Of a stretch of DNA of 5,936 nt, positions 1 through 5,936 are shown in pieces. The translations under genes and the position numbers were made by a program. Each line of letters opens with the position of its first letter. The first letter of the stretch is position 1. Under the pieces are notes generated by a model, which searched no databases, was not told the DNA's origin, and saw nothing but the letters and a program-made list of their open reading frames with translations. The stretch is from Thermoplasmata archaeon (GTDB lineage: Archaea > Thermoplasmatota > Thermoplasmata > Thermoplasmatales > Thermoplasmataceae), in the NCBI GenBank assembly GCA_021850745.1, contig JAJZKX010000131.1:1-5936 (forward strand). Direction: 5' to 3'.

Positions 1-1504
1 CTATTCCAGGGGCAACCTCGACGAGTGTTAAATTTCCTGAAATTAGCTTAAATACCCCTCTTTCCGTTATATAAGTGACCTCCTTTTTCCTCCCATCCAT
101 CAGTTTTGCGGAGAATAGTGTTTGATAAGCCTCCTTCACAAATTTCTTTCCACCATCACTGATTATTTTTATTCCTTCCATAGTAACATCTATTTTCGGC
201 TTCCCCGATGTGAAAGCACCCGAGAAAATTATTCTTGGTGAGCCGGTAACGATTACAGGAAACCCGCCGGGTCCTGTTATCTTATTCCTGAGTGATGATG
301 GATTCACGCTGCCAGTGTGATCCACTTCCATGAACCCAAGGACTGCCAGATCGATCATACCACCTTCATAAAGGGTGAATTGGTCAGGAAGTGGAATTAT
401 GGCAAATGGCCCCATCGAAAGACCAAAGTCAGGCCCTTTCAATGGAACTCCTCCCCATGGACCCGCTTCGACTGTAGAATAAACAAAGTCCCTGAGTCCT
501 TCATCATTAAGGATTGATGGTACCTCAGCCGGTATGCCAACACCAAAGTTCACTATTATGGGCCCTTTCTTTTCTGAAATAACATTCGCAACTTCTATTG
601 CCGTTCTTCTTGTGATTACATCCCTGAATGTCAATTGATCTGTTGATTCGTTTCTGGGCACATCCGGCGGAATTATGGTTCCTGAAATACCCGGATCAAA
701 TTCCAGGTTTCCACCTTGCCATGAATACATTTCCGGAGAAACGACCACATAATCAATGAGAGGACCCGGTACGTGCACAGCCTTAGGGTTCAACGTCCCG
801 AATTTTGCTATTCGTTCAACCTGCGCGAAAACTATGCCTCTCTTGGGCATTGCCTTGGCGGCTTGTGCAATGGAAAACACGCTTCCATATATGCCTTCCT
901 TCTCCATGCTCATGTTACCAATTTCATCGGCGGTTGTCCCCCTTATCAGTGAAAAGTCAGGTTGCGGGCCTTTGAAGAAAATGAATTCCTGCCCGTCAAT
1001 CATTATAATTTCCTGCGCAATACGTCTCCTGTCTTTCCCCTTGTCGTTGATGTAACATCCCGATTCCCTTGGATCCAGAAAGGTTCCCAACCCAACCCTT
1101 GTTATAAGTCCCGGCCTGCTGGCAGATATTTCCCTGAACCAATGTGCAACCGTTCCTATACTTGCTGTATATCCTTCTATATTGTTTTCCCTGACAACCT
1201 TTTCCATCCATGGAGTAAAACCAAGGAAAGGAGAAAGAATTCCGGAAAGGAATTTGAAATCACCGGATTCATACATCTTCTTTGCAATTATGTCAAGCCC
1301 TCTTCCCGGAGAACCGGGCGAGCTGTCAGAAATCAGAAATAAATCTGATGGATGACCTGTTTCTTCATACGTCTCAAAAAGTTTTAGAAGAAGAAATTCT
1401 GGTGAAGTTGATAGGTTGAACCCAGATACGGCAAATGATGAAGCATCCTCCATTTTAGTGTAAAGGAATCTGAGATCTCGTTCCTCCTTAATTATATGAG
1501 TCAT
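1..1504 (-). CDS. Family I acyl-CoA:carboxylate CoA-transferase (propionate/acetate CoA-transferase type), C-terminus beyond window
   Basis: The protein moves coenzyme A between short-chain acyl-CoA and a free carboxylate in the cytoplasm, through a glutamyl-CoA thioester. 501 codons are readable without a break from the ATG at 1504 to the left edge. The last visible residues, LVEVAPGI, match the point where Pct/YdiF-type enzymes (about 520-530 residues) have only some 20-30 residues left, so little is missing. It is an alpha-beta fusion. The N-terminal half carries GLITRVGLGTFLDPRESG (132-149), IRGTTADEIGNMSMEKE (187-203) and AQVERIAKFGTLNP (227-240). The C-terminal half carries the oxyanion loop GVGIP (321-325) and STVEAGPWGGVP (343-354), in which E346 is the expected catalytic glutamate. 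The start is the first in-frame ATG, two codons after a TAA, and the N-terminus aligns with the family. Exact substrates (acetate, propionate or another acid) cannot be read from the sequence. Family assignment is firm. Confidence 0.93.
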   Translation of the reverse strand, partial: MTHIIKEERDLRFLYTKMEDASSFAVSGFNLSTSPEFLLLKLFETYEETGHPSDLFLISDSSPGSPGRGLDIIAKKMYESGDFKFLSGILSPFLGFTPWMEKVVRENNIEGYTASIGTVAHWFREISASRPGLITRVGLGTFLDPRESGCYINDKGKDRRRIAQEIIMIDGQEFIFFKGPQPDFSLIRGTTADEIGNMSMEKEGIYGSVFSIAQAAKAMPKRGIVFAQVERIAKFGTLNPKAVHVPGPLIDYVVVSPEMYSWQGGNLEFDPGISGTIIPPDVPRNESTDQLTFRDVITRRTAIEVANVISEKKGPIIVNFGVGIPAEVPSILNDEGLRDFVYSTVEAGPWGGVPLKGPDFGLSMGPFAIIPLPDQFTLYEGGMIDLAVLGFMEVDHTGSVNPSSLRNKITGPGGFPVIVTGSPRIIFSGAFTSGKPKIDVTMEGIKIISDGGKKFVKEAYQTLFSAKLMDGRKKEVTYITERGVFKLISGNLTLVEVAPGI

Positions 1505-2513: not shown

Positions 2514-2553
2514 AACAAAATCCTTTTTAATTTATTTTGTTAACCATTTTGTT
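2514..2553. repeat. Three copies of ATTTTGTT in the divergent promoter region
   Basis: The 8-mer ATTTTGTT occurs at 2534-2541 and 2546-2553, and its reverse complement AACAAAAT at 2514-2521. The two direct copies start 12 bases apart. The copies flank the map TATA box and abut that of the SDR gene, a position suited to shared control of both genes. The AT-rich background makes this only a candidate operator cluster. Confidence 0.35.
2524..2534 (-). promoter_or_regulatory. Putative TATA box of map
   Basis: The minus strand carries an AT-only stretch (AAATTAAAAAG) centred about 38 bases before the map ATG at 2490, which would give a leader of about 10 bases. No clear Shine-Dalgarno site lies before the start, which fits a short-leader or leaderless archaeal message. 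Confidence 0.4.
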
Positions 2554-2564
2554 TATTTAATATA
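2552..2564 (+). promoter_or_regulatory. TATA box of the SDR-QueA-like operon (leaderless)
   Basis: TTTATTTAATATA is centred about 22 bases before the ATG at 2580. That is the spacing expected if transcription starts at or next to the start codon, as is common in Thermoplasmatales. No Shine-Dalgarno sequence precedes this ATG. An ATG ten bases upstream (2570) meets a stop after six codons and is not the start. Confidence 0.6.
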
Positions 2565-2579
2565 CCCACATGATAATCT

Positions 2580-3254
2580 ATGACAAATAATAAAGAAAGT
2601 GCGAGTGTGCTCATAACCGGAGGTACTTCCGGATTGGGAAGGGCATGTGTTGAAACGTTCCTGAAATCAGGATGGAGAGTAGCCACCTTTGGAAGACGAA
2701 TGGATTTGATCTCAGAGCTAAGAGAAGTTTATTCCGGTTCATCCTTAATAGCAGAAGTGTGCGACTTGCGGGTATCAAATCATGTAGACCATGTTTTGGA
2801 TCAAGTCATGGTGAAGTTTCAAAAGCTTGACGCAATAATTCTGAATGCAGGAGAGCTCGGCAGAACACCGCTGGTTACTCTTGAACAGCTGGAACTGAAC
2901 GATTTTAGAACAGTTTTTGAGACCAATTTCTTTGGAAACCTATCCATAGTTGAAAAGGTAATGAGGCGGTTTCCAAGCGGGAAAGAGGTTCTTGTCCACA
3001 TAACATCTGACGCTGGCTTAAATCCTTACCCAAAGTGGGGGCCCTATGGATCATCAAAGGCGGCTATGGATTTCCTCTTCAAGATCTTGCAATCGGAAAA
3101 CATCGAGAGCCAAAGGAGATTCCTATCCTTTGACCCGGGCGACATGAATACAGAAATGCACAAGAAAGCTCTGCCCGAGGACGAACCTGAAACATTGAAG
3201 GATCCGATGAAATCTGCGGCTGAACTGGAATCTTTGCTAAAGGAGATGATCTGA
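2580..3254 (+). CDS. Short-chain dehydrogenase/reductase (classical SDR)
   Basis: This is an NAD(P)-dependent oxidoreductase with a single Rossmann domain, 224 residues, slightly shorter than the usual 240-250. The cofactor glycine motif TGGTSGLG is at 13-20 and NAG at 89-91. The catalytic tetrad is complete: N116 (ETNFFGN), S143 (ITSDAG), Y156 and K160 (YGSSK). The basic pair R39-R40 after beta-2 suggests NADP(H) preference. PGDMNTEMH (186-194) follows the family's PG(x)xxT motif before a short, mostly acidic C-terminal helix. There is no signal peptide or membrane segment, so it is cytosolic. The substrate is unknown, because SDR sequence alone rarely reveals it. It is the first gene of an operon with a QueA-like protein one base downstream, so a role in the same, perhaps nucleoside-related, pathway is an inference from context. 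Confidence 0.9.
   Translation: MTNNKESASVLITGGTSGLGRACVETFLKSGWRVATFGRRMDLISELREVYSGSSLIAEVCDLRVSNHVDHVLDQVMVKFQKLDAIILNAGELGRTPLVTLEQLELNDFRTVFETNFFGNLSIVEKVMRRFPSGKEVLVHITSDAGLNPYPKWGPYGSSKAAMDFLFKILQSENIESQRRFLSFDPGDMNTEMHKKALPEDEPETLKDPMKSAAELESLLKEMI
3241..3245 (+). promoter_or_regulatory. Shine-Dalgarno site of the QueA-like gene
   Basis: AGGAG lies inside the last codons of the SDR gene, 10 bases before the ATG at 3256. It supports that start and coupled translation of the two genes. Confidence 0.65.
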
Positions 3255-3255
3255 G

Positions 3256-4296
3256 ATGGATTATGAAATGCTGTATGAAAGCGGGACTAAAACAGAAAAC
3301 ATGCCTCAGGAACTAATTGGCAGGGATAGGAGCGATGTCAAGCTGGCGGTTGCAGAGAAACAAAACGGGAATATTTCTCTTTTCCCGAACTTTCGCTTTA
3401 TCTCAAGAATTTTTGAACCGGGAGATCTTCTTATTCTTAATGACAGCATGATGCTGCCATCGTCTTTGTCTGCCATTGAGGAATCCACTGGAAAAAGCTG
3501 CAGGGTTCATGTGGGACAACCTCTCTCAGGAAGTGTGTATCTGGCTGAGATAAGGTCCAGATATAATTTCAGGAATGTAAAACCCAGCGACTATTTTCAT
3601 ATATCCAATTCAGGCGCAGGAGTTGAGGTTGTTGGAAAATATGAAGAATTTCCGAGGTATGCCAGAATCAGATTCCATGATTTGAAGGAGGAATTGAATT
3701 CGTTCCTGTTGAGTTTTGGTAAACCCATTTATTATGAGGGAATAACTAGGTCCTTTGATTACAAATACTATAAGAATGTGTTTCAGAACAAGTTAGGTTC
3801 CTCTGAATATCCATCTGCATCAAGACCGTTCAACAATGAGATCATGAGAGAACTTTCATCGAGAGGTGTTCAGTCGTCCACTATAACACTTCACTGCAAC
3901 CTGGCTTCGCTTGAGCGAAATGAATTTGGAAATTCCAACAGTCTTCTTCCAGAGTATTATGAGGTGCCAGGAGAGACCATTGAGAAAATAAGGAGGGCAA
4001 CGCTGATGCACAAGAGAATTATTGCTGTGGGGACAACAGTTGCAAGGGCCATAATAACATCAATAGAGAATGAAAAATTCACAAAACCAAACGGGATGAC
4101 AACGATAAAAATTGGACCTGAAACGGAGCCTTTTCCCATAACGGGAATAATTACCGGTATCCACGATGCAGAGAGTTCTCACCATGATCTCACGTCCGCC
4201 TTCATAGGGGATCTAATCTCTGAGCCTCTTTCCAATATCGTATCATCCTTTAACCTTGGTGGGCATGAGTTTGGAGATTCCCTCATGATAATATAA
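3256..4296 (+). CDS. Diverged QueA-like protein (SAM:tRNA ribosyltransferase-isomerase fold)
   Basis: Bacterial QueA transfers and rearranges the ribose of SAM onto 7-aminomethyl-7-deazaguanine in tRNA to make epoxyqueuosine. This 346-residue protein has QueA length (E. coli about 356) and motif order. EPGDLLILNDSMMLPSSL (54-71) matches the PGDLLVFNNTRVIPARL block. EYYEVP (234-238 region) matches SEYAEVP. RIIAVGTT (254-261) matches the VGTTSVR block. TGIHDAESSHHDLTSAF (300-316) matches TNFHLPESTLLMLVSAF. GGHEFGDSLMI (335-345) matches the terminal RFFSYGDAM block. Key catalytic-region blocks differ, however: PTAGLHF is PSASRPF (186-192), and HVGAGTFQPV is HCNLASLERN (213-222). The protein is therefore a distant paralogue, and its substrate may not be queuosine-tRNA. 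It sits one base after the SDR gene with its own Shine-Dalgarno site. Fold assignment is confident; function is open. Confidence 0.82.
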   Translation: MDYEMLYESGTKTENMPQELIGRDRSDVKLAVAEKQNGNISLFPNFRFISRIFEPGDLLILNDSMMLPSSLSAIEESTGKSCRVHVGQPLSGSVYLAEIRSRYNFRNVKPSDYFHISNSGAGVEVVGKYEEFPRYARIRFHDLKEELNSFLLSFGKPIYYEGITRSFDYKYYKNVFQNKLGSSEYPSASRPFNNEIMRELSSRGVQSSTITLHCNLASLERNEFGNSNSLLPEYYEVPGETIEKIRRATLMHKRIIAVGTTVARAIITSIENEKFTKPNGMTTIKIGPETEPFPITGIITGIHDAESSHHDLTSAFIGDLISEPLSNIVSSFNLGGHEFGDSLMII

Positions 4297-4298
4297 AT

Positions 4299-4325
4299 TG
4301 AAAAATTATCCACATCAAAATTTTT
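4299..4325. terminator. Short convergent gap with T-runs on both strands
   Basis: The QueA-like and regulator genes converge with only 18 bases between their stop codons. A run of five T lies at 4321-4325 on the plus strand, and another at 4301-4305 on the minus strand (AAAAA on plus). Archaeal termination needs little more than a T-run, so each may end the opposing transcript. No hairpin is seen, and the plus-strand run lies inside the 3' end of the regulator gene. Confidence 0.3.
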
Positions 4326-4956
4326 CCTTGAAATTAATCACGAACCTGCAGGTTTTTGCACCAGAAACAATTCTATGTGTTGATTCGATATCGGCCCCGA
4401 GGAGGTCCTCAAAAAGTTTTCTTTCGGTATTGCATGCCTCAGAATACTTTTCGGAAACCTGCAGAATCGGACAATTGTATTCGCAAAGTTCGAAGACGTT
4501 TTCTGAAAGTTTCTTTACTTCCGCCATGTATCCGTCAGAATTCCTGAGGGATTTCAGTTTTCCTACAAGAGTTTCCTCGTCCGTTCCATCAAGAGATTTC
4601 CGGTAATCTTCAAGAATTTTTGATGATCTAAGATGAAGTATATCTGTGACCCCCTGCATCCCCATATTCTTTTCAACATAGTCCAGGGCATCTATTGCAA
4701 GAGATGAGTAAGATTTTGGAAGAACACTATGCCCTTTTTCTGTTATGTAGACTTTACAAACCGGCCTTCCTTTCCCGGATGGAACGTATGTTCTCTCGAG
4801 CATTCCCTCCGTTTCCAGTTCGACTATGTGCTTGATTATGGCAGCCTTGGATATTCCCAATATCTCGCTCAATTCTGAAAGGGACGGTTCCCCGTTTCTT
4901 TTAACTGTTAAAAGCAATTTTGTTTTCGGAGATGATTCTGAATAGAGACCCTTCAC
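4315..4956 (-). CDS. Winged-helix transcriptional regulator with SufR-like Fe-S cysteine pattern
   Basis: This is a probable DNA-binding repressor that senses an iron-sulfur cluster (213 residues). The N-terminal helix-turn-helix spans about 24-55 (LSELSEILGISKAAIIKHI), followed by a beta-wing (SGKGRPVCKVYITEKG, 60-75) typical of the COG2345/SufR group. The C-terminal half carries NCPILQVSEKYSEACNTE, then RIVSGAKTC. Cysteines 162, 175 and 203 are spaced C-x12-C-x27-C, as in SufR, where such cysteines bind the cluster. An extra C158 makes a CxxxC with C162. The start is GTG at 4956; an overlapping ATG at 4958 is followed at once by TGA. The gene is divergent from the Rieske-ETF operon across a 138-base region with candidate operators, so it may regulate that operon and itself. 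No suf genes lie in the window. Cluster binding is inferred from cysteine spacing. Confidence 0.85.
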   Translation of the reverse strand: MKGLYSESSPKTKLLLTVKRNGEPSLSELSEILGISKAAIIKHIVELETEGMLERTYVPSGKGRPVCKVYITEKGHSVLPKSYSSLAIDALDYVEKNMGMQGVTDILHLRSSKILEDYRKSLDGTDEETLVGKLKSLRNSDGYMAEVKKLSENVFELCEYNCPILQVSEKYSEACNTERKLFEDLLGADIESTHRIVSGAKTCRFVINFKEKF

Positions 4957-4967
4957 ATTAGAATATT

Positions 4968-5016
4968 TCCTTTACTTTATTAACTGTTTCGTGAAAAAAT
5001 TGTTTTATATATAAAT
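4968..5016 (-). promoter_or_regulatory. Candidate promoter of the SufR-like gene
   Basis: On the minus strand a strong TATATATAAA box lies at 5005-5014. It would start a message with a leader of about 27 bases containing a weak AAAGGA ribosome site (4968-4973), 11 bases before the GTG. A second box, TTAATAAAG (4975-4983), is centred 23 bases before the GTG and could give a leaderless message instead. The sequence does not decide between them. Confidence 0.4.
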
Positions 5017-5094: not shown

Positions 5095-5412
5095 ATGAAC
5101 TGGTATAAAGTTGGAAAAACCAGCAGCTTAAAAGATGGAGATATCGCGAAGGTCAAGGTTTCAAACAGGGAGATCATTATAATGAATATAAATGGAAATT
5201 ATTATGCAACCTCTCACCTGTGCACTCACGAGGATTATGATCTGTCTGAAGGGTTCATAGATGATGGAACCCTTATCTGCCCTAATCACTTTGCAACATT
5301 CAGTCCTAAAACGGGGGAAGTTATCAGTCCCCCTGAAGGAGCTGGGGATATTGGCCCTTTGACATCATTCAAGACTAAGGTGGAAAACGGGGAGATCATG
5401 GTTGAGGCGTAA
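5095..5412 (+). CDS. Small soluble Rieske [2Fe-2S] protein (Rieske-type ferredoxin)
   Basis: This is an electron carrier of 105 residues with one Rieske domain and no signal peptide or membrane segment, hence cytosolic. The cluster ligands are C43 and H45 (box 1, CTHEDYDLSEG) and C62 and H65 (box 2, CPNHFATFSPKTGEV), giving C-x-H-x16-C-x2-H. The disulfide cysteines of bc1-type Rieske proteins are absent, as in ferredoxins of dioxygenase systems and in NirD-like proteins. The usual CPH is CTH, and the usual Gly after the last histidine is Phe, both mild departures. The start was placed at the ATG at 5095 because of the TATA box 24 bases upstream and because the N-terminus MNWYKVGKTSSLKDGD is the normal beginning of such domains. 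Its stop overlaps the start of the ETF beta gene by one base, so the two are probably translated together and may exchange electrons. Confidence 0.9.
   Translation: MNWYKVGKTSSLKDGDIAKVKVSNREIIIMNINGNYYATSHLCTHEDYDLSEGFIDDGTLICPNHFATFSPKTGEVISPPEGAGDIGPLTSFKTKVENGEIMVEA
5404..5407 (+). promoter_or_regulatory. Shine-Dalgarno-like site of the ETF beta gene
   Basis: GAGG sits in the last codons of the Rieske gene, four bases before the ATG at 5412. Spacing is short but usable. Together with the TAATG overlap it indicates translational coupling. Confidence 0.4.
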
Positions 5413-5936
5413 TGAAAATCCTCGTACTTGCAAAGCAAGTCCCGGATGTCAATAAAATTTCTTTTGATCCTTCCACGGGCAGGATTATCAGGGAGGGTGT
5501 TCCACTTTCAATCAACTCTTTTGACAAGAAGGCTGTTGAGGAGGCCATCAGGATCAAGGAAAGGCTTGGAGCGGAAGTTGTTGTTGCAACCATGGGGCCG
5601 CCACAGGCATCTGATATACTCAATGAATCACTCCGAATGGGAGCGGATAGGGGAATCCTCATAACAGACAGGCAGTATGGAGGTGCGGATACATGGGCAA
5701 CATCAAGGGTTCTTTCAAGGCTTGTGGAAATTGAATCCCCAGAAATTGTACTGTGCGGCAAGTACTCCCTTGATGGAGAGACTTCGCAGGTACCTCCGCA
5801 GATTGCATTCTTTTCCGGATACTCACTTGGGACTTCTGTCTCGTCAATAGAATTTCAGCAGGATAACAAGCTCATTCTTGAGAAAGAGACTGAGGGTGGA
5901 ATTGAAAAGATCAGATTGCCGATGCCCATAGTGATT
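5412..5936 (+). CDS. etfB: Electron transfer flavoprotein beta subunit (EtfB/FixA), 3' end beyond window
   Basis: EtfB forms a heterodimer with EtfA and carries electrons from flavin dehydrogenases, such as acyl-CoA dehydrogenases, to a membrane quinone reductase or, in bifurcating Fix-type complexes, to ferredoxin. 175 codons are visible of the usual 250-260. Family hallmarks are MKILVLAKQVPD (1-12), INSFDKKAVEEAIRIKE (34-50), VVATMGPPQASDILNESL (57-73), GADRGILITD (77-86), YGGADTWATSRVL (89-101) and VLCGKYSLDGETSQVPPQIA (113-132), the last being the nucleotide-binding DGxTxQVxPQ segment. The EtfB signature region (about residue 180 on), the partner alpha subunit and any dehydrogenase lie to the right, so a fused beta-alpha form or bifurcating type cannot be judged. 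It is the second gene after the Rieske protein. Confidence 0.93.
   Translation, partial: MKILVLAKQVPDVNKISFDPSTGRIIREGVPLSINSFDKKAVEEAIRIKERLGAEVVVATMGPPQASDILNESLRMGADRGILITDRQYGGADTWATSRVLSRLVEIESPEIVLCGKYSLDGETSQVPPQIAFFSGYSLGTSVSSIEFQQDNKLILEKETEGGIEKIRLPMPIVI

What the first reader, a model, noticed from the sequence alone, without database searches (positions are those of the whole stretch)
3256..4296. Diverged QueA-like enzyme in an archaeon
QueA acts in bacterial queuosine synthesis, while archaea are known to make archaeosine and not queuosine. This protein keeps QueA scaffold blocks (PGDLLILND, EYYEVP, IIAVGTT, ESSHHDLTSAF, FGDSLMI) but replaces two conserved active-site blocks (PTAGLHF to PSASRPF, HVGAGTFQPV to HCNLASLERN). 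This suggests SAM-ribosyl chemistry on a different acceptor, or a SAM-binding protein with a new role.
Basis: partly seen in the sequence, partly recalled or inferred. Interest (0 to 1): 0.72.

Follow-up and report, generated by a model that had tools for sequence, protein, structure and literature searches.

The report
QueA-like enzyme with reductase partner
An archaeal gene that databases name after a tRNA-modifying enzyme belongs to a separate branch of that family that is almost always coupled to a reductase gene and often lies beside redox-sensor genes, so it probably makes or changes something other than queuosine.

The parts
3256..4296 (+). Divergent QueA-family protein (346 aa), the finding itself
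2580..3254 (+). Classical SDR (224 aa), probably NADPH-dependent; near-constant upstream partner; one base between its stop and the QueA-like ATG
   Evidence: PF00106 119 bits; S143, Y156, K160 and R39 in all rows and N116 in 97% of 39 aligned rows, the window's SDR counted twice; adjacent in 81 of 88 loci and 20 of 20 further loci
3811..3831 (+). PSASRPF block (residues 186-192), in place of canonical PTAGLHF
   Evidence: Class-specific switches E184/A, S187/T, R190/L (divergent/canonical) in 88 vs 54 rows, two of the 88 being duplicates
3892..3921 (+). HCNLASLERN block (residues 213-222), in place of canonical HVGxGTFxPV
4153..4191 (+). TGIHDAESSHHDL block (residues 300-312), in place of canonical TNFHLPxSTLLML; H303 kept, G301 and H309 clade-specific
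4264..4290 (+). HEFGDSLMI block (residues 337-345); GD invariant in both classes, HE clade-specific
4315..4956 (-). SufR-like winged-helix regulator with C-x12-C-x27-C; candidate Fe-S/redox regulator of the module
   Evidence: TIGR02702 106 bits, below its cut-off of 178.8; its BLAST cluster lies near the module in 14 of 88 loci, window included; Cys 162, 175, 203
2539..2555 (+). GTTAACCATTTTGTTTA, candidate operator in the SDR promoter, inside a longer stretch conserved in L001, L002 and L003
   Evidence: in genome G001 the pattern has only two exact matches, here and before the regulator. The pattern was built from these sites
4979..4995 (+). ATTAACTGTTTCGTGAA, the same element in the promoter region of the SufR-like gene

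Best explanation
The gene is the second half of a conserved two-gene module: an NADPH-type SDR followed by a QueA-family enzyme of a separate clade. Shown by computation: clade separation, predicted QueA fold, changed motifs, near-constant SDR partner, hosts without the queuosine pathway, frequent Fe-S/redox-type regulators nearby, and a promoter element shared with the SufR-like gene. Inferred: the enzyme still binds SAM and starts the QueA chemistry (deprotonation next to the sulfonium, loss of adenine, attack by an acceptor nucleophile on the ribose-derived carbons, loss of methionine). The acceptor is not preQ1-tRNA but probably a small molecule, and the SDR reduces a carbonyl either in the acceptor or in the ribose-derived product. 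The product is made in response to redox or Fe-S stress, or to the compounds that cause it.
For: Separate clade: one branch parts 88 divergent rows (86 without duplicates) from 54 canonical rows, support 1.0; SH-aLRT 100 in a 59-row IQ-TREE quick run. Residues invariant in both classes (N62, E233, G259, T260, H303, G340, D341) argue for shared core chemistry, while ten columns switch, including Pro158 and Pro160 to Ile and Tyr, AAPT to ExPS, LHF to RPF, Asn to Gly two before the conserved His, and Ser to Glu two before GD. SDR upstream on the same strand in 81 of 88 divergent loci and 0 of 47 canonical loci; 20 of 20 further loci out of 39 counted in an even sample of Actinomycetota. The SDR keeps the SYK residues in all rows, Asn116 in 97%, TGxxxGxG at 94-97% and Arg39 in all rows. 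No TGT found in 14 of 50 host genomes, 9 of them named isolates. Small-molecule hints: an MFS transporter gene next to the QueA-like gene in L013, L019, L060 and L062; a VOC/glyoxalase-type gene directly downstream in 11 Bacillota loci; methionine-salvage genes mtnB, mtnC and an ARD-family gene beside the module in L004. Redox: Cys-motif ORFs of regulator size, 37 within 3 kb (474 kb) against 4 farther out (833 kb); SoxR at 196 bits, cut-off 117, in L037.
Against: No substrate-bound QueA structure is reported in PMC10491745 (2023; passage read), so SAM binding is inferred from conserved residues only. Acceptor and product are unknown. An acceptor in RNA other than preQ1 is not excluded. Many actinobacterial sensor kinases beside the module lack the Cys motif, so redox control is not shown for all. 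The motif control scores raw six-frame ORFs and for the kinases only three of the four Cys. The loci compared are related, so counts are not independent events. In genome G002 the promoter element has a third exact match elsewhere, and in G003 the regulator's copy is not found at one mismatch. The methionine-salvage neighbour was seen in one locus only. Some host genomes are MAGs, so absences may be gaps in assembly.
Confidence: 0.55

Rival explanations
1. It is a tRNA or rRNA modification enzyme that adds the SAM-derived cyclopentane or ribose to a base other than preQ1, with the SDR finishing the modification on RNA or making the acceptor.
For: The whole QueA scaffold is kept. Of the 11 archaeal genomes among the 50 searched, 9 have a TGT in an open frame of 545-781 aa, the size of the archaeal type (that size is recalled).
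Against: No TGT found in 14 of 50 hosts. The constant partner is a classical SDR, a class that mostly acts on small molecules (recalled). Motifs conserved in canonical QueA are lost. None of the recurrent neighbour clusters that I annotated is a tRNA-modification gene; not all clusters were annotated. Net charge of the two classes was not informative.
Confidence: 0.18
2. It is a SAM sink or SAM-cleaving enzyme without a true acceptor (water or intramolecular attack), making a ribose-derived enone or cyclopentanoid that the SDR reduces; this could be a signal or a metabolite.
For: It would explain the constant SDR partner, the transporters and the VOC gene without needing a specific acceptor.
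Against: No direct evidence. The clade-specific conserved residues (E184, R190, S218, H309, E338) look like a rebuilt binding site rather than a lost one.
Confidence: 0.12
3. It is a non-catalytic SAM-binding or regulatory protein that modulates the SDR.
For: Changed active-site motifs.
Against: 31 columns remain conserved in both classes, and several new residues are as conserved as the old ones, which is the pattern of a working enzyme.
Confidence: 0.06
4. It is ordinary QueA in an archaeon that makes queuosine.
For: Database name; fold.
Against: Below all three QueA equivalog cut-offs that it matches; outside the canonical clade; QueH in 0 of 18 archaeal hosts and QueG over its cut-off in 0 of 18, with sub-threshold matches of 18-22 bits in 5; 24 of 50 host genomes carry it in addition to a canonical-range copy.
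Confidence: 0.03

Closest known systems
QueA, tRNA preQ1(34) SAM ribosyltransferase-isomerase (PF02547, TIGR00113, NF001140; structures 1yy3, 1vky, 1wdi)
   Same: Fold, length, 31 conserved columns, likely SAM-ribosyl core chemistry
   Different: Active-site blocks replaced; separate clade; near-constant SDR partner; many hosts without TGT, archaeal hosts without QueG/QueH
Streptomyces coelicolor SCO1804 (listed as QueA in PMC4932002) with SCO1803 (listed as a dehydrogenase in PMC11272600) and SCO1801/SCO1802 (NarL-type response regulator and kinase in PMC9739842)
   Same: By locus-tag order and annotation the same layout as many actinobacterial loci found here: response regulator, kinase, SDR, QueA-like
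   Different: No function reported in the passages read; its sequence was not compared here
SufR, AirS and SoxR redox sensors
   Same: Cys motifs near the module match those published for SoxR and AirS (PMC4601167, passages read); the SufR-like genes that I scored match TIGR02702 below its cut-off
   Different: The AirS and SufR likenesses are motif- or domain-level only; binding of a cluster was not tested

Membership tests
PF02547 (Queuosine_synth superfamily) | Pfam gathering score of 25 bits | tested here: met
   149.1 bits over residues 23-344
PF02547 (Queuosine_synth superfamily) | QueA two-domain fold | tested here: met
QueA (tRNA preQ1 SAM ribosyltransferase-isomerase) | NCBIfam equivalog cut-offs | tested here: not met
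   117.3 of 324, 98.3 of 267.45, 52.1 of 588 bits
QueA (tRNA preQ1 SAM ribosyltransferase-isomerase) | Columns conserved in canonical QueA (around PPY, AAPTAGLHF, GTFxPV, TNFHLPxS, SYGD) | tested here: not met
   10 switched columns and 20 columns conserved in canonical rows only, 88 vs 54 rows
QueA (tRNA preQ1 SAM ribosyltransferase-isomerase) | Groups with canonical QueA in a tree | tested here: not met
QueA (tRNA preQ1 SAM ribosyltransferase-isomerase) | Host has TGT to insert preQ1 and QueG or QueH to finish queuosine | tested here: not met
   For the clade, not for the window, whose genome is not held: TGT in 36 of 50 hosts; QueH 0 of 18 and QueG over cut-off 0 of 18 archaeal hosts
QueA (tRNA preQ1 SAM ribosyltransferase-isomerase) | Turns preQ1-tRNA plus SAM into epoxyqueuosine-tRNA | not testable with these tools
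   Needs an enzyme assay
Classical NADP(H) SDR (partner gene) | TGxxxGxG, NSYK tetrad | tested here: met
   S143, Y156, K160 in all and N116 in 97% of 39 rows (38 different); T13 94%, G14, G18, G20 97%. The window's SDR has all of them. NADPH preference from Arg39 is inferred
SufR (4315-4956) | TIGR02702 cut-off 178.8 bits | tested here: not met
   106 bits; three spaced Cys kept

The most novel reading that the evidence does not exclude
A widespread bacterial and archaeal pathway of two core enzymes (SDR plus QueA-like) that takes the ribose of SAM, with QueA-type rearrangement, onto an unknown small molecule. It makes an undescribed metabolite or cofactor used under Fe-S/redox stress and hides in databases under the name of a tRNA enzyme.
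Probability: 0.4. Interest if true: 0.82.

Novelty: new variant of a known kind. Interest (0 to 1): 0.62.

Why it matters
QueA performs one of the oddest reactions of SAM, and I know of only one substrate for it (recalled). A large, consistently misnamed sister clade with a near-constant reductase partner means that this chemistry is probably used for a second purpose in many common genera (Bacillus, Actinomadura, Thermoplasma and others). The partner gene, the host range and the regulators make the question directly testable in laboratory strains, and this gene alone should not be read as evidence of queuosine synthesis.

Full report

2. A clade, not an oddity. Protein search found 256 relatives (120 listed), first from Thermoplasmatales, then proteins from Solirubrobacteraceae, Acidimicrobiia, Nannocystis and others named SAM:tRNA ribosyltransferase-isomerase. 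The 582 were not all checked for clade, and the query alignment held three canonical rows. The 80 come from Thermoplasmatota, Actinomycetota, Bacillota, Chloroflexota, Verrucomicrobiota, Acidobacteriota, Cyanobacteriota, Bacteroidota and others. Canonical rows are loci picked by their high Pfam score (L081-L127) plus seven proteins. FastTree on 142 rows splits 88 divergent (86 without duplicates) from 54 canonical rows with no misplaced row and support 1.0; a quick IQ-TREE run on 59 chosen rows gives SH-aLRT 100. In the second tree archaeal rows lie in at least two places within the divergent clade, so transfer between domains is likely.

3. What changed. Across these 88 and 54 rows, 31 columns are conserved alike and 10 switch: T/V 66, I/P 158, Y/P 160, E/A 184, S/T 187, R/L 190, S/T 218, G/N 301, W/F 336 (Gly in the window) and E/S 338, divergent first. 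H309 (100%) and H337 (99%) are conserved in the divergent rows only. PSASRPF and HCNLASLERN in the window are therefore variants of a clade signature. E184, R190, S218, H309 and E338 are 88-100% conserved, which looks like a new specificity rather than decay.

4. Not queuosine. I searched the genomes of 50 of the 80 loci. PF02547 scores fall in two bands: 26 genomes hold only the divergent gene and 24 also hold a canonical-range copy, in two cases in pieces. TGT was not found in 14 of 50, among them nine named actinobacterial isolates (Actinomadura kijaniata, Kribbella sindirgiensis, Acrocarpospora, Glycomyces, Mycobacterium colombiense, Paractinoplanes, Micromonospora, Streptosporangium, Nonomuraea); the other five are MAGs and could be incomplete, and one of them (G008) has pieces of a canonical QueA. 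In 18 archaeal genomes with the divergent gene, two of them near-identical in this protein, QueH was found in 0 and QueG over its cut-off in 0; five had sub-threshold QueG matches of 18-22 bits against 200.

5. The constant partner. By script, a classical SDR lies within 500 bp upstream on the same strand in 81 of 88 divergent loci and in 0 of 47 canonical loci, whose flanks are 1.5-3 kb or less at contig ends. In one of the 81 (L060), and in two of the seven misses (L013, L062), an MFS transporter gene stands between the two. The other five misses lie near contig ends (L017, L019, L031, L052, L070). As an independent check I took 20 of the 39 full-length hits in the divergent score range (209-277 bits) that I counted in the capped list from 198 Actinomycetota genomes: 20 of 20 have the SDR upstream, 19 within 90 bp and one at 546 bp. 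Four-base overlaps are common; in the window one base separates stop and start. In 39 aligned SDR rows (38 different) S143, Y156, K160 and Arg39 are in all, N116 in 97% and the glycine motif in 94-97%. Arg39 suggests NADPH.

6. Other neighbours. In 88 loci and up to six genes either side, by BLAST clusters: sensor kinases in 37, response regulators in 24, SufR-like regulators in 14, VOC proteins directly downstream in 11, all Bacillota. Four loci have a MerR-type gene with the SoxR Cys motif; the one scored is SoxR at 196 bits, cut-off 117. The three kinases scored are GAF plus HisKA_3. The four SufR-like proteins scored reach 84-106 of 178.8 bits. In L047 the GAF cysteines are spaced C-x7-C-x-C-x17-C, exactly as published for AirS, and the SoxR spacing C-x2-C-x-C-x5-C is met in L037. 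By motif alone (three Cys for the kinases), ORFs of regulator size number 37 within 3 kb (474 kb) and 4 farther away (833 kb). These loci are related, so this is a tendency, not a test. In the window and its nearest relatives, GTTAACCATTTTGTTTA before the SDR and ATTAACTGTTTCGTGAA before the SufR-like gene are variants of one element. The pattern was made from these sites, so their presence in the window is by construction. In genome G001 they are the only two exact matches in about 1.7 Mb. G002 has both plus a third before an unrelated gene. G003, whose protein is 44% identical, has the SDR copy unchanged, but its regulator copy is not found at one mismatch.

7. How it most likely works. From the published QueA proposal (PMC10491745, passage read): deprotonation of SAM with loss of adenine, addition of the amine to the vinyl sulfonium, ring closure to the epoxide with loss of methionine. 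I infer that the divergent enzyme keeps the first steps and uses another acceptor, and that the SDR adds an NADPH reduction. Redox control would fit a protective or signalling product. None of these steps has been measured.

8. Known or new. The proteins are in public databases under the QueA family name, and S. coelicolor SCO1801-SCO1804 shows the layout by annotation (PMC9739842, PMC11272600, PMC4932002; passages only). In the searches listed under Tried and rejected I found no paper that recognises the clade, the SDR pairing or the regulators. I therefore call it a new variant of a known kind, with unknown product.

Noticed in passing
L081-L110 (search of 194 Thermoplasmatota genomes): 33 of 194 Thermoplasmatota genomes carry a canonical-scoring QueA (322-412 bits); 21 of the 30 fetched loci have a gene beside it that matches a Bacillota TGT by phmmer. 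Queuosine capacity in archaea may be wider than the 34 genomes reported in PMC8204110.
   Followed up: partly
L004:2314-4311: Methionine-salvage genes (acireductone synthase, an ARD-family gene, MtnB) lie divergently beside the SDR-QueA-like pair in one Thermoplasmata MAG. A link to SAM-derived sugars is possible but was seen once.
   Followed up: partly
window 5095-5936: A Rieske ferredoxin and EtfB gene follow divergently from the SufR-like gene, and a Rieske gene is near the module in L001, L002 and L003 too. The regulator may also control these.
   Followed up: no
L013, L019, L060, L062: An MFS transporter gene sits directly beside the QueA-like gene, between it and the SDR where the SDR is on the contig: a hint that the product or substrate is exported or imported.
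   Followed up: no
window 2-1504 (-): Open-ended CoA-transferase with a FadX-like score of 223 bits, below that model's cut-off of 750.
   Followed up: no
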